A stretch of DNA of 34,971 nucleotides. Origin: Ferruginibacter sp. GTDB lineage: Bacteria > Bacteroidota > Bacteroidia > Chitinophagales > Chitinophagaceae. The notes under the pieces are model-generated. The model had not been told where the DNA came from. It did not search any database and saw nothing but the letters and a program-made list of their open reading frames with translations. The stretch is taken from assembly GCA_025351645.1 (NCBI GenBank), contig JANXVN010000175.1, positions 1 to 34,971 on the forward strand, read 5' to 3'. This document shows positions 2,640-23,330 of this stretch, in pieces; position 1 is the first letter of the stretch, and every line of letters begins with the position of its first letter. The position numbers and the translations under genes were made by a program.

Positions 2640-2880
2640 GAGCTCTATTATGGAGCCTTCTTATGACTGGTAACTGCAAATCAGTAGAATAGCTATTGCG
2701 TGAAAGATAGCTGTAGTTACCAGTCTGACGCACTCGTCTGACTGGTAACGGCAAATTCGAAGGGTGCCCCTTGCGTGAGGGATAGGAACGGAAATCCTTT
2801 TTGTCGGCCGCCGCAAAAAGATTGAAGTGCATAGCCCGGCCCTTACCGCAGCGGTTTGGGCACGCCCATAATAAATATGT
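2640..2880 (-). repeat. Composite REP-like element, locus 1
   Basis: Read on the minus strand, this begins with a GC-rich REP-like core (about 2767-2870: GGGCTATGCACTTCAATC, then GCGGCGGCCGACAAAAAGGA). A palindromic unit follows: arms 2716-2730 and 2735-2749 pair over 15 bp with one central mismatch around a 4-bp loop. A second, truncated palindrome half (GTTACCAGTC) follows near 2665-2680. The same two modules in the same order recur in the opposite orientation at 22955-23330. Open frames across it are by-products of the repeat. It fills the space between the efflux operon and the two-component genes. Confidence 0.8.
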
Positions 2881-5936: not shown

Positions 5937-8345
5937 TTAATTTTTCGATACAGTGATTGCCTGATTTCCATTTGCCTGGTTTCCGTTTACCTGAGTTCCG
6001 TTTGCTGAAGTTCCATTTGTCGAAATTCCATTGGCTTGCGTTCCAGTAACTCTAATACCATTAACATGCGGCTCTATGCTCTCTTCAGCAATAATTTTTT
6101 TATACATGGTTAAAGCCTGGGCTACTACCTGGTCCATGTTATAATATTTATAAGTTGCCAGCCTGCCAACAAAATATGCATCCTTCATCTGCAAGGCGAG
6201 TATCTGGTATCTTTTGTATAATGCTGCATTTTCCGCACGTGGTATCGGATAATATGGATCGCCTTCGTCAGTAGGGTATTCTGTTACAATAGAAGTTTTA
6301 TTATGCTTTTGGCCCGTGAGGTATTTAAATTCCGTTATCCTTGTGTATGCATGCTCATTAGGATAATTCACGGTACCAGTCGGCTGAAACACCGGCGCAT
6401 CCATGGTTTCAAATTTAAAAGATAACGACCTGTAAGGAAGCTTGCCATAACAGTAATCGAAAAAATAATCGATTGGGCCAGTATAGATTAATTTTTTAAA
6501 AGTAAATGCATCGATGATTTCCTTATAATCGGTATTGAGCATTACCTTAATGTTAGGATGGTTTAGCATCGTTTCAAACATGCGTGTGTACCCATGCAAA
6601 GGCATTGCCTGAAAAGTATCTGTAAAATAGCGGTCATCGCGATTGTTCCTTGTTGGTATCCTGGCAGTTACTGATGCGTCCAGTTCCGATGGATCGAGCC
6701 CCCATTGTTTTTTTGTGTATCCTTTAAAGAATTTCTCATACAATTCACGCCCAACTTTATTTACCACTACATCTTCTGATGTGTTTATATTTTTCGTTTT
6801 CTCGGCTTTTGATTCTAAAAAGGAGTCGACTTCACTGCTGTTTAATTGCAGGTTGTACAACTGATTAATGGTGTTAAGGTTAATTGGTATTGGTACATGC
6901 ATACCATCCACACTTGCTAAAACCCTGTGTTCATAGGGCCTCCAGGCCGTAAACTTGCCAAGGTAATCAAATACATCTTTAGAATTGGTATGAAAAATAT
7001 GTGGTCCATACTTGTGTATCATTATGCCATTATTGTTAAAGTAGTCAAAAGTGTTGCCTCCAATATGGTTGCGCTTATCTATCAATAAAACTTTTTTGCC
7101 GCTCTGTGTGGCTAGCCTTTCAGCTAATGTTGCACCTGCTAACCCAGCACCCACAATTAAATAATCAAACACAGTTTTAGTAGCTTTGAATGTTACCGTG
7201 TGTTTTTTATCAATAACCTGAGTAATAAGCATATTCATTTTGTCCCAGGTTTTATTCCACGAAATATCTGCTAAGAACGCATCAGTATCACGAAGCCACT
7301 CCTTTATATTTTTATCGCCTAAAATCTTTTCTCCTGCGGCTATAAATTGTTGCGGCGTATCCGCGATGTGTACTAAATTTAGCTCTCCATAAGGCGCTAC
7401 AACATCTCTAATTGAAGTTGATATAACAGGCTTGCCACCTGCAAGATATTCCGGCGTTTTGGTAGGGCTGATATAGGTGGTAGATTCGTTGATGGCAAAT
7501 GGCATCATCGCAATATCCCAACCAGATAAATATTGCGGCAGTTCTTTATAATTTTTACCCCCCAGGTAATGTATGTTTTGTTCCTTTGGCAAGCTTGCAG
7601 GATCTATTTTTACCACCGGCCCTAATACAACAAGCTGCCACTCAGGCTTTGCTTTAGCTACATCTTGCAATAACTGTAAATTAAACCTTTCATCAACAAC
7701 GCCATAAAAACCAATTCGTGGGTGAGGTATAGAAGACTGGTCGTGTGGTTCTGCCATGGCTACCCTTGCTTGCAAAAAATGCTCCTTATCTATACTGCTT
7801 GGAAAAGGATGTATGTTATGATGAAGGTGCTTTTTTGCTGAGTATAAATGATGTCCGCCCGTAAATACAATATCAGCCATTTTAAAAAGCCTCGCTTCAT
7901 TTTCTTTAAGTTTTGCAGGCGCAAATTTAAAACCAGAAAGTTCATCCATACAATCATACACAACTGCCTCAGCTATTAAATGATCACTAAAACTCAAAGC
8001 CATTGGAGAATAGTACCATAATAAATATCCTCTAATATCCATAGAACGTAACAGGTCATCCAGCAAAGTTTTTTGAGCCTGTACTACTTGTGCCTCACTA
8101 TAATTTTTTACTAAATGTGGCACTACTATCCATACATTTACAGCTGGTTGTTTGGTTATATCATAATAGTCAGATGATGCATCATAAATTGGTTCTTCCA
8201 AAATAAAGACCCTGCTATTTTTGGCAAACCTGGTTAATAGATGTTGTGGCCTTTGATATACAAAATTCCATCTAAGGTGCGAAAAGCAAACGATGTCCAA
8301 AGTCATAAGCGTTTTATTTGAAAGTTTAATAAATGTGTTGACCAC
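5937..8345 (-). CDS. glf: Glycosyltransferase / UDP-galactopyranose mutase fusion
   Basis: This 802-residue protein combines two enzymes. Residues about 15-375 look like a GT-B glycosyltransferase (QRPQHLLTRFAK near the start; RIGFYGVVDERF and SPTKTPEYLAGGKPVIST in the C-terminal half). Residues about 393-755 are a UDP-galactopyranose mutase: FAD-binding LIVGAGLAGATLAERL, then RNHIGGNTFDYF, KYGPHIFHT, GYTKKQWG and a final segment YFVGRLATYKYYNMDQV. The mutase makes UDP-galactofuranose, which the fused transferase might use directly. The tail (762-796) is seven Asn-Gly-containing pentapeptides. An alternative start is M14 (8306), where the conserved region begins. No signal peptide is visible, so it is cytoplasmic. 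Domain calls are secure; coupling of the two activities is inferred. Confidence 0.92.
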   Translation of the reverse strand: MVNTFIKLSNKTLMTLDIVCFSHLRWNFVYQRPQHLLTRFAKNSRVFILEEPIYDASSDYYDITKQPAVNVWIVVPHLVKNYSEAQVVQAQKTLLDDLLRSMDIRGYLLWYYSPMALSFSDHLIAEAVVYDCMDELSGFKFAPAKLKENEARLFKMADIVFTGGHHLYSAKKHLHHNIHPFPSSIDKEHFLQARVAMAEPHDQSSIPHPRIGFYGVVDERFNLQLLQDVAKAKPEWQLVVLGPVVKIDPASLPKEQNIHYLGGKNYKELPQYLSGWDIAMMPFAINESTTYISPTKTPEYLAGGKPVISTSIRDVVAPYGELNLVHIADTPQQFIAAGEKILGDKNIKEWLRDTDAFLADISWNKTWDKMNMLITQVIDKKHTVTFKATKTVFDYLIVGAGLAGATLAERLATQSGKKVLLIDKRNHIGGNTFDYFNNNGIMIHKYGPHIFHTNSKDVFDYLGKFTAWRPYEHRVLASVDGMHVPIPINLNTINQLYNLQLNSSEVDSFLESKAEKTKNINTSEDVVVNKVGRELYEKFFKGYTKKQWGLDPSELDASVTARIPTRNNRDDRYFTDTFQAMPLHGYTRMFETMLNHPNIKVMLNTDYKEIIDAFTFKKLIYTGPIDYFFDYCYGKLPYRSLSFKFETMDAPVFQPTGTVNYPNEHAYTRITEFKYLTGQKHNKTSIVTEYPTDEGDPYYPIPRAENAALYKRYQILALQMKDAYFVGRLATYKYYNMDQVVAQALTMYKKIIAEESIEPHVNGIRVTGTQANGISTNGTSANGTQVNGNQANGNQAITVSKN
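5958..6062 (-). repeat. 15-bp coding minisatellite (seven units)
   Basis: The end of the mutase-fusion gene is seven contiguous 15-bp units encoding five-residue repeats of the form (N/T)-G-x-x-x (NGNQA, NGTQV, NGTSA, NGIST and relatives), covering residues 762-796. Such a tract can change length by slippage without breaking the frame. Confidence 0.85.
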
Positions 8346-8786: not shown

Positions 8787-9959
8787 CTACAGCGCATATG
8801 CCTCGCTTTTTATATGCGTACGAACTTGTTGCTGTGCTTTTAATAAAGCATTTGCATATGGCTGATACAAGATGCGTTTGGGCGGAGCGCCATTAATCAC
8901 TTCAGCATCCCACAAGCCAGAGTGGTGCCATGCTTCAAGATGGTCCCAGTCTGTACGGTCTATGATGGGATACAAACAAACGCCTAACAGTGGGATACCT
9001 TTTTGTAACGCATCACTACATTCTTCGCCTATATAATTTATCCATTGCGGCCTGTCTATGCCGGAATGGCTAGTCTCAGAAATAACTAACGGGCACCCAT
9101 AACGCTCGAAGCCCATTTCAAGGAGGTAGGCTAAACTTTTCCATCCCTGGTCAGTTTTCCTTTCCTTCCAGCCCAAAAAAATATGCTTGTCTATTGTCCA
9201 CTGGTTATTGAAGTAATAATTAAAGCCCATGTAATCCAAATATTCAGGCGAGCCACCAAGCTCCGGACAAATTTTACCACATAAAATATCCATTGCCTGA
9301 AATTGCGCCTCGTTATGTGCTTCAGCAGCGGCGGCCTCATCAAGGGTAGCGCCATCAGGCGCCACAATATTTACCAATGGTTCTGTAGCCATAATTTTTA
9401 TGAGCGGATCAATTTCTTTCATCGCAATAACACCTTCAATATATGCCCGCATCAAACTATATTTCACATCCCACCCCTGCCCATTGCAATAAGGCGACGT
9501 ACCTTTTACATCACCACCAAGCCACGATATAAAACTTACTTCATTGATGGGGGTAACTATCAATATATTATTAGGAAAATATTTTTTGTACAAAAACACA
9601 AATGCCCGGCATACTGCAGCAAAGCGGCGTGCAAACATGGGGTGCAAAGGTGTAAGGTCATCAGGATACCCAAAGTGGCAGATATCCCAAATTTGCTGAA
9701 TATTGTGAAGCTTTGCTTTTTCAAACATAAATATAACCGTAGACCAATCATACTTGTAAGGTTGTTTTTCTACTATGTTCCAGCGTATGCCTTCCCTTAC
9801 CGTTTTAATTTTAAATTGAGAAAGATGCAGGTAGTCCTCATCCATCAAATGCAGGTGGCCGCTAGTTTTTAACAAGTCGGCTCTTTCACCAAAACAATTT
9901 AATTGATCGCTGCATTCGTACCCAGCCATCCAAAAACTGTAAAAAGGAGAATGTTCCAT
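8787..9959 (-). CDS. GH1-like (clan GH-A) glycosidase-related protein, copy A
   Basis: This 390-residue TIM-barrel protein is related to family 1 glycosidases. Seen: EGIRWNIVEKQPYKYDW (barrel strand with an early Arg), the acid/base position VTPINE (E140, matching the TFNEP motif) and a candidate nucleophile VISETSHSG (E295). LDYMGFNYY and a late W/E segment (DWDHLEAWHHSGLWD) also fit the family. There is no signal peptide, so it is cytoplasmic. It resembles the product of 19133-20476 in architecture and catalytic positions, though they are far apart in sequence. A 91-bp MITE-like element lies 29 bp upstream. It sits beside the mutase-fusion gene on the same strand, 441 bp apart. Substrate unknown. 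Confidence 0.8.
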   Translation of the reverse strand: MEHSPFYSFWMAGYECSDQLNCFGERADLLKTSGHLHLMDEDYLHLSQFKIKTVREGIRWNIVEKQPYKYDWSTVIFMFEKAKLHNIQQIWDICHFGYPDDLTPLHPMFARRFAAVCRAFVFLYKKYFPNNILIVTPINEVSFISWLGGDVKGTSPYCNGQGWDVKYSLMRAYIEGVIAMKEIDPLIKIMATEPLVNIVAPDGATLDEAAAAEAHNEAQFQAMDILCGKICPELGGSPEYLDYMGFNYYFNNQWTIDKHIFLGWKERKTDQGWKSLAYLLEMGFERYGCPLVISETSHSGIDRPQWINYIGEECSDALQKGIPLLGVCLYPIIDRTDWDHLEAWHHSGLWDAEVINGAPPKRILYQPYANALLKAQQQVRTHIKSEAYAL

Positions 9960-9978: not shown

Positions 9979-9988
9979 GTTTATAATA
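9979..9988. repeat. Left 10-bp flanking direct repeat of MITE copy 1
   Basis: GTTTATAATA immediately precedes the 91-bp element and is repeated exactly at 10080-10089, immediately after it. This is the expected footprint of a transposition-generated target-site duplication. Confidence 0.85.
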
Positions 9989-10079
9989 CAATGCCGTTAA
10001 GTTAAGACCTTTCCTCTCCTTTGGAGAGGGTTAGGGTGAGGTAAAGACAAACATATAGATCCTTAACTTAACGGCATTG
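9989..10079 (-). mobile_element. 91-bp MITE-like element, copy 1
   Basis: The element is 91 bp long with perfect 18-bp terminal inverted repeats (CAATGCCGTTAAGTTAAG at each end, inverted). An internal palindrome CCTCTCC-TTT-GGAGAGG gives strong folding potential. Exact 10-bp direct repeats GTTTATAATA flank it. Copy 2 at 19018-19108 is also 91 bp and differs at only four positions by my alignment. It is too small to encode a transposase and none is nearby, so it would be moved in trans. Ten-base target duplications are compatible with an IS4-type transposase, which is an inference only. Confidence 0.9.
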
Positions 10080-10089
10080 GTTTATAATA
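10080..10089. repeat. Right 10-bp flanking direct repeat of MITE copy 1
   Basis: GTTTATAATA, identical to 9979-9988 on the other side of the element. Confidence 0.85.
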
Positions 10090-10373
10090 ACAAACTACTG
10101 ACCGTAATTTTTGAGAACTATTTAAAGCTGACCTTAAACCAATTTACTGAGTAACTTATTCTACAAATTCTTATATACAATCTATTAGAAATCACAACTG
10201 TTTCTTTTTTACCTCAATCAATTTCAGTAAAATTAATCGTTTGCAGGATGTACATTTATTTTGTAGTTAGATAACGTATCAATCACAAAAAACCAGCAAC
10301 ATTTGCATGCTTATTGTTATGGTGGGATATAAGATTTTAGGGCTTAATTTTTCTCACTCAACTGCGTAATTAC

Positions 10374-11537
10374 ATGGTGCAGGCTAGCATAAAAAAAAGC
10401 GTTACAAAAAACAAAAACATTTTCGGGCATTGTAAGGCACCACAAATATCTTTAAAGGTTTGTGTTGTTGTACCTGCAAAAGATGAAGCCGAAAATATTT
10501 TTTATACGTTAGATGCATTAAGGAACCAATTGCATACAGATGGCTCCAGGCTTGATAATTCTTTGTTTGAAGTTTTATTGCTGGCCAACAATTGTATTGA
10601 TGGTACCCTGGATGTTGCCTTACGTTACGCTGCTGAATTTCCCGATTTTAACTTGCATGTTACATCGGCTATCATTCCCCGAAAAAAAGCGAATATTGGT
10701 TATGTACGAAGGATATTGATGGATGAAGCCTGCCGGCGATTATCTTTAAATGGCTCTACTGAGGGCATCATTGCATCAACTGATGGCGATACCGTAGTTG
10801 ATAAATATTGGCTAAGCAATATTATACAGGAAATAGCTTTGGGAAACGATGCTGTTGGAGGAAGGATACTTACAAATAACATTGACCCAAGCGCCAGGCT
10901 TTATTATTTAAGGGATGTAACTTATAGGTTGCTGCAGGCAAAAGTTAACTCCATAATAGACCCAGAAAAAAATAACCCATGGCCCTGCCACCATCAATAC
11001 TTTGGGGCTAGCCTGGCTGTTACCAGCAGCATGTACATTTTTTGTGGCCGGCTGCCCGGAGTGCCGCATTTAGAAGATATGGCCTTGTACAATGCGCTGG
11101 TTAAGGTAGATGCAAAAATAAGGTGTAGCCCAAATGTAAAAGTGTACACATCAGGCAGGACGGACGGCAGGGTTGAAATTGGGTTTAGCGAACAGTTGAA
11201 ACAATGGGTTATGCTCAATAACAACCATACGCCACAAATGGTAGAACCCGCAGCATCATTGATTATCAAGCTACAAGCAAAAAAGCTACTTAAGAAATGC
11301 TATGAAACCTACAGTGAAAAAAGAATAATAGAAAGAAACAGTATAAAAGTTATTGCTGATAGCCTGATGATTGATGCAAGCTGGTTAACTGCTGAAATTG
11401 CTGGTGCAACATTTTTTGGCGCACTTTGGCAAATTACCGAAGATGTAATTGGGGAAGGAGATTTTTATGAAGAATACCCCGCTGTATATATTATGGAAGC
11501 AGTTGACGGGTTAAGGAAATTTTTAAACGAGGGTTAA
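10374..11537 (+). CDS. Family 2 glycosyltransferase
   Basis: This 387-residue GT-A enzyme would transfer a sugar from a nucleotide donor. Seen: the opening strand VCVVVPAKDEAENIFYTLDAL (about 29-49), ASTDGDTVVDKYWL with the metal-binding D-x-D-like TDGD at 136-139, and a later acidic motif LPGVPHLEDMALYNAL at the position of the catalytic ED pair. No transmembrane helices are visible, so it is probably soluble. It is convergent with the NodS-like methyltransferase gene; the two genes share the four bases TTAA (11534-11537) as overlapping stop codons. That intimacy and the deacetylase beyond suggest a common pathway. The acceptor is unknown. Confidence 0.85.
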   Translation: MVQASIKKSVTKNKNIFGHCKAPQISLKVCVVVPAKDEAENIFYTLDALRNQLHTDGSRLDNSLFEVLLLANNCIDGTLDVALRYAAEFPDFNLHVTSAIIPRKKANIGYVRRILMDEACRRLSLNGSTEGIIASTDGDTVVDKYWLSNIIQEIALGNDAVGGRILTNNIDPSARLYYLRDVTYRLLQAKVNSIIDPEKNNPWPCHHQYFGASLAVTSSMYIFCGRLPGVPHLEDMALYNALVKVDAKIRCSPNVKVYTSGRTDGRVEIGFSEQLKQWVMLNNNHTPQMVEPAASLIIKLQAKKLLKKCYETYSEKRIIERNSIKVIADSLMIDASWLTAEIAGATFFGALWQITEDVIGEGDFYEEYPAVYIMEAVDGLRKFLNEG

Positions 11538-12124
11538 TTTATTTTTTCAAATAAATCTAACCGGTAAGTTTCGTGCCTTTGCTGCTGCAAATGCTTTAGT
11601 TCTATTTTATCCAATTCTAAAAAATAGTCGTTAACATAATTTCCGGTTTGTGGATAATCGTGTACAAGCGGCGTCCAGTGTACCATTAATAATTGCCCGC
11701 CTTTGATTAATTGTTTCATTGTTTTTTTACGCAACATCCCTAGCGCTGCATTGTCCAAATAGTATGCAACTTCAGAAATTATTATAAGGTCATACATTTC
11801 ATTTCCAAAATCCGCAGGTACTGTCATTCTTTTAACCTGCACATTTGGGTATGCGCTTAATCGCTGCCTCGCCTTTACAAGTGGCGCCTCTACTGCATCT
11901 ACAGCCAAAAGGTTTTCGCATTTATTCATAATCATTTCGCTAAGTACACCTATGGAGCAGCCTATTTCAAAAACATTGTGGTAAAGGGGCTTAGTTAGTG
12001 CGTTAATGGTAACTGCATACTTTGCTCTTTCATAATCGCTGCCCTCAAAGTTCCATGGGTCTGTATTTGCACTATATACCTCATCAAAATATTTTTCAGA
12101 AAGGCTGTTTTTAATCGCTGGCAT
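11534..12124 (-). CDS. NodS-like SAM-dependent methyltransferase
   Basis: This 196-residue class I methyltransferase resembles the NodS family, which N-methylates the deacetylated sugar of Nod factors in rhizobia. Seen: KYFDEVYSANTDPWNFEGSDYERAKY near the N-terminus (the typical DPW/YE-KY opening), the SAM-binding strand NVFEIGCSIGVLSEM (motif I, about 50-64), LLAVDAVEAPL (acidic loop) and DLIIISEVAYYLD (motif IV-like). It lies 4 bp downstream of the PIG-L deacetylase gene. Methylation of an amine exposed by that deacetylase is an attractive inference, but the substrate is not shown. Confidence 0.85.
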   Translation of the reverse strand: MPAIKNSLSEKYFDEVYSANTDPWNFEGSDYERAKYAVTINALTKPLYHNVFEIGCSIGVLSEMIMNKCENLLAVDAVEAPLVKARQRLSAYPNVQVKRMTVPADFGNEMYDLIIISEVAYYLDNAALGMLRKKTMKQLIKGGQLLMVHWTPLVHDYPQTGNYVNDYFLELDKIELKHLQQQRHETYRLDLFEKIN

Positions 12125-12128
12125 GTTA

Positions 12129-12869
12129 CTAGTTTTTTAGTTGTATAAATAATTCGAAAGACCCTTTAAAATGATCCAGTACTTTTGGCGACAACATAAA
12201 GCCATCAGCATCATCATCAATTAATTTTGTTAACTGAGATGCATGCGCTTTAATAGCAGCGTGCTTAATTTCAACCACACTATTAATATCAATTTTACAT
12301 AAAGTTGTTTTCAGTAATTCATCATCCACATCTCCACGCTCCCAAAACCAAATTAAATAATGTAACAAATTTACTTGTAATCCGGCTTGTATTATGGCTG
12401 CAGCTGTAATTTGCCAGCTAGCTTTATGATCGCGGTGAGGGTCGTTTTTCCAGGGCAAAATAATAGTTTGCGGTTGTACATTTTTTAATAATTCAGACAT
12501 TTTACTGACCGCCTCCGTAAAGCCAGTTGATTCAATAGCTGGTACTGCACCGTCTTTCAGGCGCATAAAGTGGCAGTACGTAGCAGGAATACCCAAAATA
12601 TTTGCTGCGGCTAACGCCTCCCTCTCTCTTAGTTGCATCAATAAAGGCGCTATGTATTTTTGGGAATTTGGGTGAGACATACTGCCATCGCTTACAAAAA
12701 TAATATGCACATTTTTACCAGCTTTTGCCAGGGCTGCAATGGTACCCCCACAGCCAAGCGATTCATCATCAGGATGCGGAGATATTATTATAGTAGCCCC
12801 AGTGAAGTTTTCTATCGATAAAAGATGTGCATCATTAACCCATTGGTCTTTAAATTCAATCCCAGGCAT
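12129..12869 (-). CDS. PIG-L (LmbE-like) family N-deacetylase
   Basis: This 246-residue zinc-dependent deacetylase belongs to the family that removes N-acyl groups from N-acetylglucosamine-type sugars (GlcNAc-PI deacetylase, MshB, BshB relatives). Seen: the metal and catalytic motif IISPHPDDESLGCGGT (about 29-44) and the distal histidine motif PWKNDPHRDHKAS (about 140-152). The start overlaps the end of the acyl-CoA-dehydrogenase-like gene by 14 bp, and its stop lies 4 bp before the methyltransferase start, so the three are translationally close. The likely role is deacetylation of an amino sugar placed by the GT2 enzyme; the actual substrate is unknown. Confidence 0.9.
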   Translation of the reverse strand: MPGIEFKDQWVNDAHLLSIENFTGATIIISPHPDDESLGCGGTIAALAKAGKNVHIIFVSDGSMSHPNSQKYIAPLLMQLREREALAAANILGIPATYCHFMRLKDGAVPAIESTGFTEAVSKMSELLKNVQPQTIILPWKNDPHRDHKASWQITAAAIIQAGLQVNLLHYLIWFWERGDVDDELLKTTLCKIDINSVVEIKHAAIKAHASQLTKLIDDDADGFMLSPKVLDHFKGSFELFIQLKN

Positions 12870-13956
12870 CTTTAATTTTTTCGCTTTTTAAAAGATAGGC
12901 ACCAACAGAAGAAATAACTGCATCCGGGGCTGGCTGCCTCAAATAAAACGTAAGGTCGCGGTGCAAACGTTCCAATGTGTTGGGTTGCATTAAGCCTATA
13001 GGCCCAATACATACACCAGAGAGGTATAAAATACGGCTACAAATATTTTCAATTGCAGTACGTACTATACCGGCATAAGCCATATTTTTTTCATTAGTTG
13101 CCGGATAGTTGCGCCATTTTTCAGTTTTTTCAGCAACACTGTTTAACCAGTTATTACCGCACGCTGCGAGCATTGCCATTTCTGCAATCCTCGCTTTTTG
13201 TTGCTCAGAGCCAGCCCTGTTCTGTTGCCGTAAAAAGTGATGTGTAGCCTCTACAATTGATAGGGCACCACCAAGCTGTACTGCGGCAAACCTTGTAGCG
13301 CCGCCATTAAAATAAGGTTCTGCATAATAGGTATCGGGAGCTCCTAAAAAGCACTCCTCGCCTATCTCCACACCTGTAAAATCTATTTTAAAACTAGCTG
13401 AAGCCCGCATCCCCATTGGTTTCCAAAAACTATTGTCTTCTTTAAAAGGCTTTAATTTTTCAACGGGCAATATACACATTTGCCACCCAATTTTACCAGG
13501 GGCAATTAATTTCCCTGTTACTATTGGGCGTTGTATCCAATGCGCCCCAGAACAAAACATTTTTCCTCCTGCTACTGTATATTTACCATTTGGCTGTAGC
13601 GTTATGGTAACGCCGTTTTCATTTTCAGAGTTCCAAACGCCAAATAGTTTATTATTTGCAGCAGCGGCATACCATTCCCTTTTTTGTGCTTCTGTACCAA
13701 ATGCATGCACTAATTGCAAAGCATTAATATGCCCCTCATAAATTCTTCCTACAGAAAGATTAGCGCCGCCAACATTTTTTAAAAGATGTAAGAGGCCTTT
13801 AGTAGATGCCTTATTAAAATCAAGCGGTTCGCCAGGCAAAACTATTTTTAGTAAGCCTGCAACGGCCATACACATAAATTCTTTATCCGGAAAATTACCA
13901 GCTACATCATTAGCTGTAGCATTTAATGCAATGTCTTTAAATAATTGATCAAACAA
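12856..13956 (-). CDS. Acyl-CoA-dehydrogenase-like flavoprotein
   Basis: This 366-residue protein has the acyl-CoA dehydrogenase fold pattern. It has a helical N-terminal half with GRIYEGHINALQLVHAFGT, the middle beta-domain stretch FGVWNSENENGVTITL...AGGKMFCSGA, the hallmark WKPMGMRASASFKIDFTGVEI (about 178-200), and a helical C-terminal half ending RLHRDLTFYLRQPAPD. I could not place the usual catalytic glutamate near the C-terminus, so it may be an oxygenase or N-oxidase type relative. It is the first gene of the minus-strand group with the PIG-L and NodS-like genes and overlaps the former by 14 bp. Role unknown. Confidence 0.8.
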   Translation of the reverse strand: MFDQLFKDIALNATANDVAGNFPDKEFMCMAVAGLLKIVLPGEPLDFNKASTKGLLHLLKNVGGANLSVGRIYEGHINALQLVHAFGTEAQKREWYAAAANNKLFGVWNSENENGVTITLQPNGKYTVAGGKMFCSGAHWIQRPIVTGKLIAPGKIGWQMCILPVEKLKPFKEDNSFWKPMGMRASASFKIDFTGVEIGEECFLGAPDTYYAEPYFNGGATRFAAVQLGGALSIVEATHHFLRQQNRAGSEQQKARIAEMAMLAACGNNWLNSVAEKTEKWRNYPATNEKNMAYAGIVRTAIENICSRILYLSGVCIGPIGLMQPNTLERLHRDLTFYLRQPAPDAVISSVGAYLLKSEKIKDAWD

Positions 13957-14005
13957 AATAAATGTATTTTCGCGCCCGTTTCATTTTGCGCTTACCAGTA
14001 ATAAA

Positions 14006-14461
14006 TTATGCTGTCTGGTCCCTAAAAGATTTTATCTCGTCATGAGAATATTTTAATTGCTGTTGCTGGCCAAGGATCATTTCCTTTAAAAAAGAAGGCA
14101 AATGTTCCTCTTGTAAAGCTTCAGTGTAAGCTTTTTGCGCAGCATCTTCGCCCGCTTCGCAATTAGCAATTACAGCATGCCTGTCGTGCCCTGTAAATAT
14201 TGCTTTAATATCCATCCATGCACGGTAAACTTTACCCGAAGCCATAGTACCTTCTGCCATGGTACCTCCTAAAACTTGTACTTCTTTTCCCAGTGCCATC
14301 CTGGCTTGCCTGCTTTCATCAATCATGTTTTCAAACAGCGGCTTAAGGTCGCTATCTTCAGGCGCCAACTCTTCCATAGCGCGTTCATAACCTGTTATAC
14401 GGTCATTGTTGATCATTATAAGATCATTCAATGTTTCGATTGTTTCTTTATTGTTTTCCAT
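14006..14461 (-). CDS. DUF2383 / PA2169-type four-helix-bundle protein
   Basis: This 151-residue all-helical protein matches the ferritin-like DUF2383 pattern: ETLNDLIMINNDRITGYERAMEE at the start, FENMIDESRQARMALGKEV, then GKVYRAWMDIKAIFTGHDRHAVIANCEAGED and a final helix PSFLKEMILGQQQQLKYSHDEIKSFRD. The E/H positions resemble those of ferritin-like bundles. Members of this family are often found with stress genes; here a catalase and an SDR lie within 8 kb. Molecular function is not established. Confidence 0.85.
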   Translation of the reverse strand: MENNKETIETLNDLIMINNDRITGYERAMEELAPEDSDLKPLFENMIDESRQARMALGKEVQVLGGTMAEGTMASGKVYRAWMDIKAIFTGHDRHAVIANCEAGEDAAQKAYTEALQEEHLPSFLKEMILGQQQQLKYSHDEIKSFRDQTA

Positions 14462-14585
14462 TGTTAAAGTTTTAATATGCTACTACAATCCCATGCCAAA
14501 GTTTACAATGCATTATTTCGAAAAAAATATAAGTATTGAAAAATAGTCTCAATCCAAGAAAAATTTTCAACAGCATGGCCATGCT

Positions 14586-15344
14586 TTATACCAAGTTAAA
14601 TGCCGCCTCAATTATCTCCGCTATCCACACAGGGGCTTCCATTGGGTATAAATGCCCAACATTTTTTATAGTTTTTAAATGGGCGTTTTGCAAATACGGC
14701 AGTACCTTGCTTTTAATAGTTGCAAAACTAATGGCAGGGTCATTTTCAGCGTCCATTACTATTACCGGGCAAGTTAAACCAGCCAGCACATTACGTACCG
14801 GGCATTGAGAGCCTTTGTTTACCCACCATTCCCTTACATTTTTTGTAGTGGTTATTTGGGCAAGCACCGCAGTATCAAGCTGTTGTTTAGTTAGGTTTTT
14901 TTTCCAGCTTTTTAATGGTAGCCATTGCCTGGGATTCGTTGGGCACCTGCACTAGATTTTTTTTATCAGCAAGGTTAATACTTTCATTGCCAGGCGGCGA
15001 TGGGGCAATAAGCAACAATTGTTCAACCCTGTTACTGATGTCGTTTACGGCTATTTGCAAAGCAATTTTTCCACCCATCGAATGCCCGCTAATACTATAT
15101 TTATTTATATCCAGGCCATCAATTTGGGATTGTATAAAAAACGCATAATTTGCAATAGTCAAAACCTTTAATGGCAATGTGCCGCCACACCCAGGCAGGT
15201 TAAAAGCAATACAGGTAAATGTGGGCGATAGCATTGAAGCCACCCATTGCCAGCAACTGGCATCGCCACCAAAATAGTGTAAAAAATCAACACCTTGTTC
15301 CCGTTTCCACATTTTATAAATGGTGGTGGCAAATTATCTTTCAT
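14586..15344 (-). pseudogene. Alpha/beta hydrolase, frameshifted twice
   Basis: Reassembled, this is a roughly 252-residue alpha/beta hydrolase. Start ATG at 15344 (MKDNLPPPFIKCGNGNKV), then a frame change at the T6 run 15281-15286 (gene strand; one base seems missing) into FLHYFGGDASCWQWV. The nucleophile elbow is SGHSMGGKIAL and the region IAPSPPG follows. A second frame change at the A8 run 14896-14903 (one base extra) leads into the C-terminal part with acid VMDAENDPA and catalytic histidine NVGHLYPME. All catalytic parts survive in one frame or another, and protein sequence is otherwise well kept. That points to sequence errors or very recent damage. Substrate unknown. Confidence 0.75.
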
Positions 15345-15361
15345 GTTTATTTTGAAATGTT

Positions 15362-15485
15362 AGTGGACAAAAACTTGCATGCAAATTTCTGTCCGGGGTA
15401 ATACAATAGCTCTGTTAGGCATTGTTGCGGCACTCAATTTTACAACATATCTTTTTGGTACAACTCCTCCATTTGCTACCCATTG
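15362..15485 (+). repeat. Hairpin-bearing intergenic element, copy 1 (divergent, internally deleted)
   Basis: It begins with a hairpin (GGACAAAAACTTGC/GCAAATTTCTGTCC, about 15365-15394), followed by GGTAATACAATAGCT and GGCATTGTTGCGGCAC. It ends with ACTCCTCCATTTGCTACC. These blocks line up in order with the copy at 31408-31560 but lack about 40 bp of its middle. It lies between the divergent hydrolase and SDR genes. Confidence 0.65.
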
Positions 15486-15591
15486 CAAAATCCTTTATCG
15501 CTTGCCTTCAGTATACAATTTATCCATTGCTTGACTGGATTGGGCTAGGTAGAATAATTATTGGTTCTTATGTATAAACAATACAAATCAC

Positions 15592-16462
15592 ATGCAGCAA
15601 GAATATAGGCCCATGGCAGAAGAAATAACAGCAGAGCAATTGCCTTATCCTGCTGCACAGGCAGATATGAAGCAACAGCCTGATAGCGACCTGTCTAATT
15701 ATAACGCTGCCAATAAGTTAGCAAATAAGGTCGCGATAATAACAGGTGCCGATTCAGGCATTGGGCGTGCCGTTGCCATTGCATTTGCTAAAGAGGGAGC
15801 AAGCATTGCCATAGTGTACAATGAAAACGATGGAGACGCGGCAGAAACAAAACGCCTGATTGAACTACATAACCAGCAATGCCTTGTTATAAAGGGAGAT
15901 GTAAGAAGCAAACAAGCTTGCTTTAATGCGGTGGAAGAAACCGTAAAAACTTATGGCGGCCTGAACGTTTTAATAAACAATGCCGCCTTTCAGCAAGTGC
16001 AGGAACGGTTAGAAGATATTAGTGAAGAGCAATTGCGCCGCACGTTCGAAATAAATATTATTGGTTATTTTTTTATGGCGCAAGCCGCATTGCCGCATTT
16101 AAAAAGTGGTGATGCTATTGTAAATACGGGCAGCATTGTTGGTATGACTGGCTTAGAAATCCTGGTAGATTATACGTCAACAAAAGGTGCCATCCATTCG
16201 TTTACAAAATCGCTTGCGTTGCAGTTAGGCAAAAAATATAAGGGTAAACTGCGTTATACCTGGCCCCGTTTGGACGCCTAACATACGCGGTACCATGCCT
16301 GCAAAAGAAGTAGCCAACTTTGGGCATGAAGTAGCACTGGAAAGCCCTGCCCAGCCAGAAGAGCTAGCACCAGCGTATGTTTTATTAGCTAGCAGCGATG
16401 GCAGCTTTATTACCGGAAGCTTGCTGGAAGTTACCGGTGGGCGTTTATCGGCAGCAAAATAA
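15592..16462 (+). pseudogene. SDR family oxidoreductase (YghA/general-stress-39 type), frameshifted
   Basis: Reassembled, this is a 289-residue short-chain dehydrogenase with the long N-terminal extension typical of YghA/GSP39-like stress proteins. Seen: cofactor motif ITGADSGIGRAVA, NNAAFQQ, catalytic Ser in NTGSIVGM and YTSTKGA (Tyr/Lys). At the A6 run 16231-16236 one extra A moves the reading into a premature stop near 16281. Dropping one base restores NIRVNCVIPGPVWTPNIRG and the normal end ITGSLLEVTGGR at 16462. It is the first of three plus-strand oxidoreductase genes; the next starts about 11 bp later. The substrate is probably a sugar or alcohol, by inference. Confidence 0.8.
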
Positions 16463-16473
16463 TTACATCAAAA

Positions 16474-17082
16474 ATGAACATAAATATCCTTTAGGCATTG
16501 TGGCTGCAGTATTAAGAACGGATGCTGTTACTGAATTTACAAAAAAAGTTTTATTGCAAAGGATGGAGCAAAATCAAATTGCCCTAGCTTTTTTTACTAT
16601 TGATGAATTTAATTTATTATCGCTTGTGTGCGATTTATTATTAGCCCAGGATAGTACACAAAGGATTTGTAACCCAGCCATTGACATTGAAAGGCACTTA
16701 TCAAAAAACGATGCGGATGGATGGCGGTATGACAGTATGCCTGCAGATAGGCTTGCCTACAAAAACGGCCTGCAGGGAATTGAGGAATCTGCTCATATAA
16801 AATAAAAAGCCTTTTGCCCAGTTAGAAAAAAAGCAACAGGCTCAACTATTGCAACAGCTTCAAACGGGCATTATTACCGGATCCGTTTGGCAAGTTTTAC
16901 CGGCAAAACTATTTTTTGAAGAGCTGCTTGCTGAAGTAGTTGCTATATTCAACAGCCATCCTTTAGCGCAGGAAGAAATTGGTTATACAGGTATGGCCGA
17001 TGCGGCAGGCTGGCATAAAATAGGACTTAATGAAAAGGATGAAATAGAAACCGATGAACTTACTGTAAATAAAAACATGTAG
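16474..17082 (+). pseudogene. Gluconate 2-dehydrogenase subunit 3-like protein, frameshifted
   Basis: Reassembled, this is about 202 residues resembling the gluconate 2-dehydrogenase small-subunit family, which accompanies GMC flavoproteins. The part ending at 16805 contains FFTIDEFNLLSLVCDLLL and CNPAIDIERHLSKND. An extra A in the run 16799-16802 causes a stop; removing it continues into PFAQLEKKQQAQLLQQLQTG and the C-terminal WQVLPAKLFFEELLAEVVAIFNSHPLAQEEIGYTG. The start is also unclear: ATG 16474 needs one extra A to join the frame, while GTG 16500 is in frame but gives a shorter N-terminus. Its stop overlaps the GMC start (TAGTG). No TAT signal is visible. Confidence 0.7.
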
Positions 17083-18634
17083 TGCAAAAATATTCGGGTA
17101 CCGATATTGTAGATGCAGTAATAATAGGCACTGGCGCAGGCGGATCGCTAATATTGTCGAGGCTTTCAAAGGCAGGGCTAAAATGGGTCGCTTTAGAAGC
17201 CGGCCCCTTTTTCAACCCTTCTACTGAATTTGCTACTGATGAAAAAGAACAGGAAAAAATATTCTGGCAATTTGAGAGGTTAAGCGCCGGCAAAAATCCG
17301 CTGGCCTTTGGCAAAAATAATTCAGGCATTGGCGTTGGTGGCTCTACTATTCATTTTACGGCTTATACGCCACGCCCGCAGCCAGATGACTTTTCGATTT
17401 ATTCAGCATTTGGCGTTGGCAATAACTGGCCCATCAATTATTACGGCCTTGAAAATTATTACGATGAACTGGAAAACTTTTTAGGCATATCCGGCCCATC
17501 GCACTACCCATGGGGCCCAAAAGAAAAAACAATTACCCGCTACAGCCTTTGCCGTTAAACGCTGCCGCACAATTGATGCAGCGAGGCTGTAATTCTTTTA
17601 AAATAAAAACTTCGCCTGCAGCTAATGCGGCATTATCTGGTGCTTATTACCAGGAACATGTTGGCTGGCGGAGGGCTTGCACCAACCGTGGCTTTTGCCA
17701 AACAGGCTGCAGCGTTGGCGCCAAAGCCAGTATGAATGTTACTTTCATCTCTTACGCCATACATTTTGGCGCCGAGGTAAGGGCTGAAAGTTTTATAACG
17801 GGCTTTGGGGGAAATGCAGCCGGCAACATAACCGCAGTAATTTATAATCGTAACGGCAAAGAAGAAAAGCAACTTTGCAAAAATGTATTTTTATGCGCTG
17901 GAGCTATCGAAACGCCAAGGTTATTATTGATGAATAATTTAGCCAACAGCAATGGGATGGTGGGCAAAAACTTTATGGCGCATGTAGGCACGCAGGTTTG
18001 GGGCGAGTTTGAAGAAATGGTACGCCCCAACAAAGGCATCCCAGGCGGATTAATATCGGAAGACATGCATCGCCCCCCCAGCACTGGCTTTGCAGGAGGG
18101 TACATTTTACAATCTATAGGCGTTATGCCTGTTACCTACGCGTCGCAATTAGCACGCAGCTCTGGCTTTTGGGGACAAGCATTGCGGGACAAGATGCGTA
18201 CCTACAACCATACCGCTGGTATCAACATGCACGGGGAATGTTTACCAAGCGAACAAAATTTTCTTGAATTGTCAGATGAAAAAGACCAGTTAGGATTACC
18301 AAAACCAAGGATACATTTCACTAACGGGGATAATGAAAATAAAATGAGTGAGCATGGCGAAAAGCTGATGGTGCAAATTTGGAAAGCTGCAGGCGCAACA
18401 AATATTATAGTGCAGCAACGCATGGCACACACCATCGGCACCTGCAGGATGAGCGATGATGAAGCCATTGGTGTTGTAAAAAGCAATGGGCAATCTTTTG
18501 AAGTATCTAATTTATATATCGCAGATAACTCCGTTTTTCCAGGGTCGCTAAGTGCCAACCCTGCATTGACTATTATGGCGATAGCATTGCGTACCGCAGA
18601 TTTATTTTTGGAACAAAAAAAGTCTCCGCTTTAA
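17082..18634 (+). pseudogene. GMC family oxidoreductase (gluconate dehydrogenase flavoprotein type), frameshifted
   Basis: Reassembled, this is a 517-residue FAD-dependent GMC enzyme that would oxidise a sugar or alcohol. Seen: GTG start overlapping the previous stop, FAD-binding VIIGTGAGGSLILSRL, the GGSTIHFTAY loop, a cysteine cluster CTNRGFCQTGC, LCAGAIETPRLLL, and the C-terminal motifs HTIGTCRM and ADNSVFPGSLSANPALTIMAIALR with the His/Asn catalytic region. At 17519-17529 (AAAAGAAAAAA) one base appears missing, so the frame changes from one ending at 17558 to the one that runs to 18634. Protein conservation is good on both sides. It probably forms a complex with the preceding small subunit. 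Confidence 0.85.
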
Positions 18635-18792
18635 GGTGGAATATCATAAATAATGTGCATAATGCAAAATATTGGATGTGTTGAAATTCAATAGTAGACA
18701 CGCAATGAAATACGGTTCTACACAAAAAATAAACAGGTAGTAAATTGCTGCTTCCCATACAGCCTGAAGCCTTTGATTGGCTGTAAGACCAG

Positions 18793-19017
18793 CAGCGTAT
18801 ACCTATTAAAAGTATACTGTAGTAAATTGAGGAGGAGCTGAATAAAGGTATGCCGTAAAAGGGAGGGACACAACCCCTTCTGACTGGCGTCAGCCGGGCG
18901 GAGATGATCACCATAGCTGCTGTATTAGCCCGGACAAAAATCTGCATGTATATTTTTGTCCGGTTAAAACGAATTATCATAAAATACCGCATCCGAAAGA
19001 ATTCTTAATTCTTAATT
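18793..19017 (-). repeat. Hairpin-bearing intergenic element, copy 2
   Basis: Inverted relative to the copy at 31355-31570. Shared blocks: AGTAAATTGAGGA, GCCGTAAAAGGGAG, GATGATCACCATAGCTGCTG and a hairpin. In this copy the hairpin at 18930-18963 has a perfect 12-bp stem (CCGGACAAAAAT/ATTTTTGTCCGG) with a 10-nt loop. About 36 bp beyond the hairpin both copies carry AATTAAGAATT, read in the element's direction. The MITE at 19018 was inserted at this end. It follows the GMC gene and could influence its mRNA end, but no T tract marks it as a terminator. Confidence 0.75.
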
Positions 19018-19108
19018 CAATGCCGTTAAGTTAAGGATTAAAATGTTTGTCTTTACCTCACCCTAACCCTCTCCAAAGGAGAGGAAAGGTCTTAACTTAA
19101 CAGCATTG
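19018..19108 (+). mobile_element. 91-bp MITE-like element, copy 2
   Basis: Same length and same terminal inverted repeats as copy 1 (left end perfect, right end with one change: CAGCATTG). It has the same internal palindrome and four differences in total over 91 bp by hand alignment. Flanks ATTCTTAATT (19008-19017) and ATACTTAATT (19109-19118) agree at nine of ten positions and look like an aged 10-bp target duplication. It ends 24 bp before the start codon of the second GH1-like gene. Confidence 0.88.
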
Positions 19109-19132
19109 ATACTTAATTCTTAATTAAAGCAA

Positions 19133-20476
19133 ATGGCGGCAAAAAGTTTCCTTACAATCATCGATAAAAAATACGGCGTAGGTGCCAGTTACCAGGGCGA
19201 TCAATTTGGTGGCAGCACCGGGCATGATGGAAGCGGAATGCCGCAAAATAACCTTCGTAATTTTATGTTTGCAACAGGCATTGAATGCAGCAACCCAACC
19301 ATTGGGCATGGCAAAATACGGCGTGATTTATTAGAAGAATGCGGGCACTATGAGCACTGGAAAAAAGACCTGCAACTGGTACGTTCCATGGGCTTGAATG
19401 TATTGCGGTATGGCTTGCCGTATCATTTAGTAAATAAATCGGAAGGGCGCTACGATTGGAGCTTTGCAGACCTGGCAATGAACGAGATAAAAAGACTTAA
19501 GATTACGCCCATACTGGATTTTATGCATTTTGGCATACCGGATTGGATAGGCAATTTTCAAAACCCCGACCTGCCTATTTTATTTGCAAACTATGCAGCA
19601 GCAGTTGCTCAACGCTACCCATGGATTAGGTTTTATACACCCGTAAATGAAATATTTGTTACCGCAAAATTAAGCGCTAAAGAAGGTATATGGAACGAGC
19701 AGTTAAAGACTGACAAAGGCTTTGTAACAGCCATTAAAAATATTGTTGCTGCAAGCATTCTAGCTACCCACCAAATTGCAAAGCAACGCCCGGATTGTGT
19801 GATTGTACAAAGCGAAAGCGCTGAATATTTACATGAAGCAACGGTGTGCAAAAGCGCAGCTACAACGCTCATCAACAAGCTTCGTTTCCTATCGTTGGAT
19901 TTATTGTACGCACACCCGCCTGATGCCGATGTATGCATGTATTTATTAGATAACGGCCTAACCAGAAAAGAATATGAATGGTTTATGAAGGGCGAGCCGC
20001 CAGGGTACCAGGTGATGGGCAACGACTATTATGGCCGCAACGAACAGATAAAAATGCCGGATGGGAACATAGTAAACATTGCCGATGTATTGGGTTGGTA
20101 CCAGATAACAAAAACTTATTACGACCGCTATAAAAAACCGGTAATGCACACCGAAACAAATGTTTTTGATGCGCAGGAAGCACCCATGTGGCTGTGGAAA
20201 CAATGGATGAATATTTTACAGATTAGAAAAGATGGCATTCCTGTTTTGGGCTTTACCTGGTACAGCTTGATAGACCAGGTGGATTGGGATATTGGGCTTG
20301 CAGAAAAGCGAGGGAAAATTAATGAATGCGGGCTGTTTGATATGGACAGGAACCCCCACCCTGTTGCGGCTGCTTATAAAACTTTACTGAAAGAATTTGG
20401 GCAAATAACTATTGTGCCGTACGGAGAGATGTTTGAGATAACACAAAAAGAAGCAAGCCTTAAAGCGCAGGTGTAA
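19133..20476 (+). CDS. GH1-like (clan GH-A) glycosidase-related protein, copy B
   Basis: This 447-residue TIM-barrel protein is related to family 1 glycosidases. Seen: FMFATGIECSNPTI as strand 1, LNVLRYGLPYHLVNKSEGRYDW, the acid/base motif FYTPVNEIF (E173), QVMGNDYYGRNEQ and the candidate nucleophile PVMHTETNVF (E341) followed by GFTWYSLIDQVDWDIGL. It has no signal peptide. It has the same general plan as the 8787-9959 product but with an extra N-terminal segment of about 40 residues. Its start codon lies 24 bp after a MITE-like element. It is in the direction of the SDR/GMC genes but 498 bp away. Substrate unknown; the sugar oxidation genes nearby hint at an intracellular glycoside. Confidence 0.8.
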   Translation: MAAKSFLTIIDKKYGVGASYQGDQFGGSTGHDGSGMPQNNLRNFMFATGIECSNPTIGHGKIRRDLLEECGHYEHWKKDLQLVRSMGLNVLRYGLPYHLVNKSEGRYDWSFADLAMNEIKRLKITPILDFMHFGIPDWIGNFQNPDLPILFANYAAAVAQRYPWIRFYTPVNEIFVTAKLSAKEGIWNEQLKTDKGFVTAIKNIVAASILATHQIAKQRPDCVIVQSESAEYLHEATVCKSAATTLINKLRFLSLDLLYAHPPDADVCMYLLDNGLTRKEYEWFMKGEPPGYQVMGNDYYGRNEQIKMPDGNIVNIADVLGWYQITKTYYDRYKKPVMHTETNVFDAQEAPMWLWKQWMNILQIRKDGIPVLGFTWYSLIDQVDWDIGLAEKRGKINECGLFDMDRNPHPVAAAYKTLLKEFGQITIVPYGEMFEITQKEASLKAQV

Positions 20477-22954: not shown

Positions 22955-23330
22955 TGGGGCGCACCTGCGGCCGGGCTATACACTACAATCTTTTTTTGCG
23001 GTGGCCGACAAAAAAAGGATTTTCGTTCCTATCCCTTGCGCTTCAATCTGAGGAGTATTGGCATAAAATAATATTTTTAAATGATGGGCGTTTTCAAACT
23101 TGCCGTAAACCAGTCAGACGACGGCGTCAGGCTAGTTACTCGGACCCTTTGCAAACTTATCGTAACCAGTCAGACGAGGGCGTCAGGCTGGTTGCTAGGC
23201 TCTCTTTGCAAACTTATCTTAAAAAGTGAGAAGATGGTGTCAGGCTGGTTACTAGGCCCTCTTTGTAAACTTGCCTTAACCAGTCAGACGAGGGCGTCAG
23301 ACTGGTTAAGGCAAGTTTATCAACACTTAT
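22955..23330 (+). repeat. Composite REP-like element with tandem palindromes, locus 2
   Basis: It starts with the REP-like core (about 22955-23045: GGCCGGGCTATACACTACAA, then GGTGGCCGACAAAAAAAGGA) that matches locus 1 in the opposite orientation. It continues into four tandem 57-bp palindromic units (23091-23318). Open frames crossing it are repeat artefacts. It lies between the catalase gene and the helical-repeat gene. Confidence 0.85.
23091..23318 (+). repeat. Four tandem 57-bp palindromic units
   Basis: Units start at 23091, 23148, 23205 and 23262, each exactly 57 bp. Each begins TTTnnAAACTT and contains a dyad built on CCAGTCAGACG and CGTCAGACTGG or variants of it. The last unit forms the best hairpin: arms 23267-23290 and 23295-23318 pair at 23 of 24 positions around AGGG. 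The third unit is the most degenerate (AAGTGAGAAGATGG). The central mismatch is A opposite A in both this unit and locus 1. Confidence 0.9.

What the first reader, a model, noticed from the sequence alone, without database searches (positions are those of the whole stretch)
9979..19118. Two copies of a 91-bp MITE placed just upstream of two related GH1-like genes
Copies at 9989-10079 and 19018-19108 are both exactly 91 bp, share 18-bp terminal inverted repeats and differ at four positions by hand alignment. Copy 1 is flanked by identical 10-bp direct repeats (GTTTATAATA); copy 2 by 10-bp repeats with one mismatch. The target duplications differ, so these look like two insertions rather than one duplicated upstream region. 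Yet each lies 24-29 bp before the start codon of a GH1-like gene, in the same orientation relative to that gene. The element would therefore be in the leader or promoter of both, and could supply a shared promoter, terminator or folded mRNA leader.
Basis: partly seen in the sequence, partly recalled or inferred. Interest (0 to 1): 0.72.

Follow-up and report, generated by a model that had tools for sequence, protein, structure and literature searches.

The report
Jumping DNA carrying a hairpin repeat
The two 91-base copies belong to a tiny jumping element present in roughly 165 copies in this bacterium; landing near two sugar-enzyme genes looks like chance, but its centre is a widespread hairpin repeat whose means of spreading was unclear, and here it is carried by a transposon.

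Summary
Both 91-bp elements exist as described. They belong to a recently amplified family: 331 matches to the 18-bp end in the 4.7-Mb genome, about 165 copies. Of 132 sampled copies with flanks, 75 have a perfect 10-bp duplication (0.8 expected), with AATTATAATT as consensus target. Full-length IS4-family elements with these ends, and 9-10-bp duplications, occur in Bacteroidota, Acidobacteriota and Planctomycetota; part of one lies at a contig edge in this genome. So it is an IS4-type MITE, presumably moved in trans.

The GH1 pairing looks like chance: there is no bias to gene starts or orientation, and the genome's canonical GH1 gene has no copy nearby.

The unexpected part is the core. It has the layout of the "intrastrand triplex motif" (TM), reported from more than 260 genomes and not linked to mobile elements in E. 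coli. Here all 72 strict TM matches, and 103 of 105 looser core matches checked, lie beside element ends; two diverged copies are bare. In relatives, 38 of 38 TM places read are bare. Elsewhere the same ends often enclose other hairpin-rich repeats. This suggests that IS4-type ends can carry such repeats. Triplex formation and gene regulation are untested.

The parts
9979..9988 (.). left 10-bp target duplication of copy 1 (GTTTATAATA)
9989..10079 (+). MITE copy 1, 91 bp, IS4-type ends; 15 further sampled copies have the identical sequence
9989..10006 (+). left terminal inverted repeat of copy 1, CAATGCCGTTAAGTTAAG
10013..10041 (+). triplex-motif (TM) core of copy 1: arm CCTCTCC, loop TTT, arm GGAGAGG, linker GTTA, third stretch GGGTGAGG
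   Evidence: layout of the type A TM in PMC4666352 Table 1 (passage)
10062..10079 (-). right terminal inverted repeat of copy 1
10080..10089 (.). right 10-bp target duplication of copy 1 (GTTTATAATA)
19008..19017 (.). target duplication of copy 2, low-coordinate side (ATTCTTAATT)
   Evidence: 9 of 10 match
19018..19108 (-). MITE copy 2, 91 bp, reverse orientation, four differences from copy 1
19018..19035 (+). terminal inverted repeat of copy 2, exact
19056..19084 (-). TM core of copy 2
19091..19108 (-). terminal inverted repeat of copy 2, one mismatch
19109..19118 (.). target duplication of copy 2, high-coordinate side (ATACTTAATT)
8787..9959 (-). neighbouring gene, 390 aa, related to the gene at 19133; not part of the element
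   Evidence: no Pfam match; weak sub-cut-off GH35 NCBIfam match
19133..20476 (+). neighbouring gene, GH1-like, 447 aa; not part of the element
   Evidence: PF00232, E 8.2e-14

Best explanation
The two sequences are independent insertions of a high-copy, recently amplified, non-autonomous IS4-type element. A DDE transposase of the IS4 family, made by an autonomous IS with the same 18-bp ends, would recognise the ends and move the element by cut-and-paste (inferred from the family). Insertions favour AT-rich palindromic sites and leave a 10-bp duplication (shown). The interior is not shared with the full IS elements seen. It has the layout of the widespread G/C-rich triplex-type repeat (TM), and in this genome nearly all detected copies of that repeat lie between the element's ends (shown for the copies checked), so it has been multiplied as cargo (inferred). 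The position before two GH1-like genes is coincidental and fits the element's AT-rich intergenic targets. In other bacteria the same ends enclose other, mostly hairpin-rich interiors, some of which also occur without the ends, so ends and cargo behave as separable modules (shown as a pattern; how they combine is inferred).
For: Copy number: 331 end matches at up to 2 mismatches. In 808 kb of stretches there are 133 end pairs, 96 of them exactly 91 bp (three, of 128, 146 and 326 bp, are read as spurious overlapping pairs). Duplications: 75 of 132 perfect at 10 bp and 97 of 132 with at most 1 mismatch, against 0.80 and 2.27 in shuffled flanks; nothing comparable at 7-9 or 11-13 bp. Helper: full IS L154 1572 bp, L164 1399 bp and L224 1398 bp, each with 10/10 flank duplication (one end of L164 and of L224 has one mismatch), and L187 1436 bp with a shared 9-mer in the flanks. 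All four match DDE_Tnp_1; three pass and one (L164, a fragment) fails the NCBIfam IS4 cut-off. Y, R, E and K of the YREK signature are invariant in five aligned transposases. Own genome: contig C301 ends inside such a transposase; 69 aa are 70% identical to L224, and the frame runs into an end with 3 mismatches. Cargo: 72 of 72 strict TM hits and 103 of 105 looser core hits (111 genome-wide) have an element end nearby, whereas 38 of 38 distinct TM places read in relatives have none (best 6 mismatches of 18). Foreign interiors: 34 of 45 fold with z below -3, against 3 of 90 random segments and 22 of 85 intergenic segments.
Against: No intact helper IS was seen in this genome; the C301 end is partial and has 3 mismatches. 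Empty sites were not searched. Context statistics come from 808 kb of 4.71 Mb, chosen around copies. Two diverged TM-like copies in this genome (C303:10092 and C3:8641) have no element ends, so the cargo claim is 'nearly all', not 'all'. Hairpins are also common in intergenic controls (22 of 85). In the foreign set 36 of 52 end pairs lack an 8-of-10 flank duplication. Triplex formation was not tested; the published in vivo footprint did not support stable triplex (PMC4666352). Arm covariation is weak: 1 compensated, 12 still-paired and 22 broken pair changes over 60 unique rows.
Confidence: 0.9

Rival explanations
1. The element was co-opted as a shared regulatory leader or promoter for the two GH1-like genes.
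For: Both copies lie 24-29 bp before start codons of related genes in the same orientation. As RNA the gene-sense strands fold strongly (z -7.8 and -6.0).
Against: No bias to starts or orientation across the family. The canonical GH1 gene has no copy. The one -7-like stretch differs between the copies (consensus recalled). TM cores (PIT motifs) showed no promoter or terminator activity in an earlier study cited by PMC4666352.
Confidence: 0.05
2. The element is a REP/REPIN-type repeat moved by a Y1 tyrosine transposase (RAYT), not by a DDE transposase.
For: The core is a hairpin repeat, and Y1_Tnp matches exist in this genome (7) and in 32 of 39 searched genomes.
Against: 18-bp inverted ends and 10-bp duplications point to DDE transposition; full IS4-type elements share the ends.
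Confidence: 0.03
3. The TM core is ordinary old MITE interior, and bare TMs elsewhere are MITE relics that lost their ends.
For: QMITE2 copies that lost TIRs and came to resemble REPs are described (PMC10969869, passage). Two diverged bare TMs exist in this genome.
Against: Bare TMs in relatives show no remnant of the ends (38 of 38 places, best 6 of 18 mismatches). The relative G044 carries the ends but no strict TM. 19 of 52 foreign interiors also match a place without ends.
Confidence: 0.15

Closest known systems
IS4 family, IS4 subgroup (PMC2266710, 'IS4 family goes genomic'; passages seen)
   Same: Ends fit the subgroup pattern -AATR--------WTW----; duplication 10 bp (10-13 listed); YREK signature; full elements 1398-1572 bp (1400-1650 listed).
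   Different: The window copies carry no transposase; with the four full IS elements they share the 18-bp ends but no evident longer subterminal sequence.
Intrastrand triplex motif TM / TMECO (Holder et al. 2015, PMC4666352; abstract, section 15, section 20 part 1 and passages read)
   Same: Pyrimidine arm, short loop, purine arm, TTA linker and GGGTGAGG third stretch, as in the type A motif.
   Different: Their E. coli TMs were not associated with mobile elements; here nearly all detected TMs sit inside a transposable element with target duplications. The arms are two pairs shorter (7 instead of 9).
Bacterial MITEs such as Chunjie, Nezha and BrickBuilt (PMC10969869 and PMC3733652 passages; PMC4596501 listing only)
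   Same: Short, non-coding, inverted ends, high copy, mostly intergenic.
   Different: IS4-type ends, with a repeat that is widespread in its own right as the interior.
REP dimers inside palindromes (PMC3733652, 2013, section 7 read)
   Same: REPs regularly sit within longer palindromes in three species; in two of them the palindromes were not found without REPs.
   Different: That section does not identify the palindromes as transposon ends with target duplications; here the ends match an IS family in several phyla.

Membership tests
MITE | Short, non-coding, terminal inverted repeats | tested here: met
   91 bp with 18-bp ends; no ORF of 100 aa overlaps either copy
MITE | Target site duplication | tested here: met
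   75 of 132 perfect 10-bp (control 0.80)
MITE | Autonomous partner with the same ends | tested here: met
   L154, L164, L224 and L187 in other bacteria; partial element in own contig C301; no intact copy seen in the own genome
MITE | Empty orthologous sites | not tested
   no search for empty sites was run
IS4 family, IS4 subgroup (helper) | YREK signature in the transposase | tested here: met
   Y, R, E, K invariant with spacing 2, 3, 6 in five aligned transposases
IS4 family, IS4 subgroup (helper) | Ends -AATR--------WTW----, duplication 10-13 bp, 1400-1650 bp | tested here: met
   CAATGCCGTTAAGTTAAG fits; 10 bp in three, 9 bp in one; 1398-1572 bp, two of four just under 1400 against PMC2266710 Table 1
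IS4 family, IS4 subgroup (helper) | Mobilises the 91-bp element | not testable with these tools
   needs a transposition assay
Intrastrand triplex motif (TM) | Sequence layout of the G/C-rich TM | tested here: met
   CCTCTCC-TTT-GGAGAGG-GTTA-GGGTGAGG against Table 1 of PMC4666352
Intrastrand triplex motif (TM) | Forms a triplex | not testable with these tools
   needs CD or NMR
GTAG REP / REPIN moved by RAYT | GTAG tag, spread by a tyrosine transposase without TIR-type duplications | tested here: not met
   no GTAG in the 91-bp copies; 10-bp duplications

The most novel reading that the evidence does not exclude
IS4-type ends are general carriers that repeatedly take up whatever dispersed hairpin repeat is at hand (triplex motifs, GTAG-type palindromes and other widespread repeats), in several phyla. 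This would explain how some of these repeats spread. The hairpin may even be needed, for example because it brings the two ends together for the transposase.
Probability: 0.3. Interest if true: 0.75.

Novelty: new variant of a known kind. Interest (0 to 1): 0.5.

Why it matters
The triplex motif is abundant in many bacteria and has been tied to genome instability, and the study that described it found no mobile element near its E. coli copies. A genome in which nearly every detected copy is cargo of one identifiable transposon, with target duplications, gives a concrete and testable route of spread. If the exchange between ends and cargo holds up, part of the unexplained stock of widespread bacterial hairpin repeats could be traced to non-autonomous IS elements.

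Tried and rejected
Shared GH1 promoter or leader: rejected on family-wide position and orientation and on the third GH1 gene. Rfam, gathering threshold: no family at the element; two Flavo-1 RNAs elsewhere in the window. The intact 404-aa DUF4372-type IS4 transposase on C48 has no end like ours at 5 or fewer mismatches in the locus read around it, so it is not the helper by end sequence. Viral collection: one end match, at base 71 of a contig, no partner found. Arm conservation by covariation: not demonstrated. My first control for hairpin content used random, mostly coding segments (3 of 90); an intergenic control is much less extreme (22 of 85), and I lowered the probability of the novel case from 0.35 to 0.3 for it. 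My first wording that all TMs in this genome lie in the element was corrected after (two bare, diverged copies). Literature: of the strings searched, core strings were found in PMC4666352 and in two papers not opened; the end strings nowhere. Topic searches. No paper joining TM and MITE was seen in those listings; the library is open-access only.
Full report
Observation. The two 91-bp sequences are present as described. Both have 18-bp inverted ends (one mismatch in copy 2) and differ at positions 7, 67, 69 and 70. Copy 1 has a perfect 10-bp duplication; copy 2 has one with a single mismatch. The neighbouring genes are related at 24% identity; only the second has a Pfam GH1 match.

Copy number and target. 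The 18-bp end has 331 matches at up to 2 mismatches in the 4.71-Mb, 320-contig genome, and none for the reversed pattern; by arithmetic about 165 elements. I fetched 100 stretches of own contigs; with the window they total 808 kb. They hold 133 end pairs: 96 of exactly 91 bp, and 10 of 112-113 bp that form a second subfamily with a related core. Three of the 133 (128, 146 and 326 bp) I read as spurious overlapping pairs. Of 132 with both flanks, 75 have a perfect 10-bp duplication and 97 have at most one mismatch; shuffled flanks give 0.80 and 2.27. Nothing comparable is seen at 7-9 or 11-13 bp. The position-by-position majority of the duplicated target is the palindrome AATTATAATT. Sixteen copies, copy 1 included, are identical, which suggests recent amplification.

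Gene context. With a simple ORF caller, 128 elements were placed (pairs outside 80-120 bp, with poor ends or with a poor core were dropped): 4 overlap an ORF, 20 lie at stretch edges, and 75, 16 and 13 lie between co-directional, convergent and divergent genes. Target-like 10-mers without an element overlap an ORF in 1078 of 2010 cases, so insertions inside genes are strongly under-represented. Between co-directional genes the elements are modestly over-represented (75 of 104 against 362 of 619, p=0.009). Start codons lie within 100 bp for 27 of 101 neighbours against 228 of 608 for target-like sites (p=0.04, towards avoidance); stop codons for 46 of 107 against 227 of 630 (p=0.19). Orientation to starts is 16 to 26 (p=0.16). 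A canonical GH1 gene on C308 has no end match in the 3.4 kb read. The query found only three GH1-related places; others could have been missed. The GH1 pairing is best taken as chance. Two copies in 35 kb are ordinary at this density (about 1.2 expected by arithmetic).

Helper. About 7.5 single matches are expected by chance, so I count only paired ends. Four full-length elements were found: L154 Holophagae 1572 bp, L164 Fulvivirga 1399 bp and L224 Chitinophagaceae 1398 bp, each with 10 of 10 flank bases duplicated, and L187 Planctomycetota 1436 bp, whose flanks share GAACAGTTC. One end of L164 and one of L224 has one mismatch. Their proteins match DDE_Tnp_1 and, L164 excepted, pass the NCBIfam IS4 cut-off. 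The frames of L164 and L224 are broken or short. YREK is invariant. Ends, duplication and size fit the IS4 subgroup in PMC2266710 Table 1 (passage). In this genome contig C301 ends inside such a transposase: 69 aa at 70% identity to L224, its frame running into an end with 3 mismatches. The same-genus genome G044 has 16 end matches at up to 1 mismatch, several near contig edges and next to transposase sequence.

The core. The interior CCTCTCC-TTT-GGAGAGG-GTTA-GGGTGAGG has the layout of the G/C-rich intrastrand triplex motif (TM) of Holder et al. 2015 (PMC4666352). They report it from more than 260 genomes, found no mobile element associated with its E. coli copies, and cite an earlier test without promoter or terminator activity. 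A strict TM pattern hits 72 places in this genome and occurs in 16 of 59 genomes searched in the genus, this one included. All 72 own hits have an element end nearby. With a looser core, 111 places exist; 105 lie in my stretches, and 103 of these have an end nearby. Two, C303:10092 and C3:8641, are diverged and bare, and have the TTGGGG linker seen in many bare copies of relatives. Of 62 strict hits in the 15 other genus genomes I read 37 distinct places, plus one in another family (G026); none has an end at fewer than 6 mismatches. G044 has ends but no strict TM. So ends and core are separable, and among the genomes searched this one combines them in high copy.

Same ends, other cargo. In 111 loci read (96 from named genomes, 15 from the genus; the viral one left out), 52 end pairs of 60-420 bp occur in 50 loci. 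Sixteen of 52 have at least 8 of 10 flank bases duplicated, against a mean of 0.42 and a maximum of 3 in shuffles. Of the 45 interiors of 20-200 bp, 34 fold with z below -3, median -5.1, against 3 of 90 random segments and 22 of 85 intergenic segments, median -1.35. Seven longer interiors were not folded. TM-type cores are found by pattern in L176 and L219, a Methylobacter and a Methylococcaceae genome. By eye others hold GTAG-type palindromes or repeats that I recall as widespread; that naming comes from no call. Nineteen of 52 interiors match a place elsewhere in these loci with no end within 120 bp, many over only 20-50 bases. In L204 a 103-bp insert with different ends and an 8-bp direct repeat (GCTGTTTT) sits inside such an element and carries a CCCCCTTTTTCAAAGGGGG repeat; L228 carries a similar one inside IS4-type ends. 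PMC3733652 section 7 notes REPs inside palindromes in three species, a partial precedent.

Mechanism. Shown: ends, duplications, target preference, copy number, IS4-family elements with the same ends in other bacteria, and the near-exclusive placement of detected TMs inside the element here. Inferred: mobilisation in trans, capture of the TM between the ends, any benefit of a hairpin interior. Not shown: triplex formation, effects on neighbouring genes, empty sites. The element folds strongly as RNA in the three strands tested (z -6.0 to -7.8), mostly through its ends, so a local effect on an mRNA leader remains possible.

Verdict. The finding is a real MITE; its regulatory reading is not supported. 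Its interest lies in the cargo.

Noticed in passing
window 2768-2845 (+) and 22965-23046 (-): Two Flavo-1 RNAs at gathering threshold.
   Followed up: no
window 5937-8345 (-): 802-aa protein joining a group 1 glycosyltransferase match and a UDP-galactopyranose mutase domain.
   Followed up: no
relatives, e.g. L306, L310, L324, L330: 10 of 38 TM places in relatives lie inside open frames of at least 150 codons with at least 25 codons on each side, so the repeat may be read as protein.
   Followed up: partly
L204:1259-1489 and L248:932-1150: Inserts with other ends nested inside IS4-type MITEs; the one in L204 has an 8-bp direct repeat.
   Followed up: partly
own contigs C36, C44, C79, C102, C318 and others: A second, 112-113-bp subfamily with the same ends and a related core.
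   Followed up: partly
own contigs C303:10092 and C3:8641: Two diverged TM-like copies without element ends, close in layout to the bare copies of relatives; possible source type of the cargo.
   Followed up: partly
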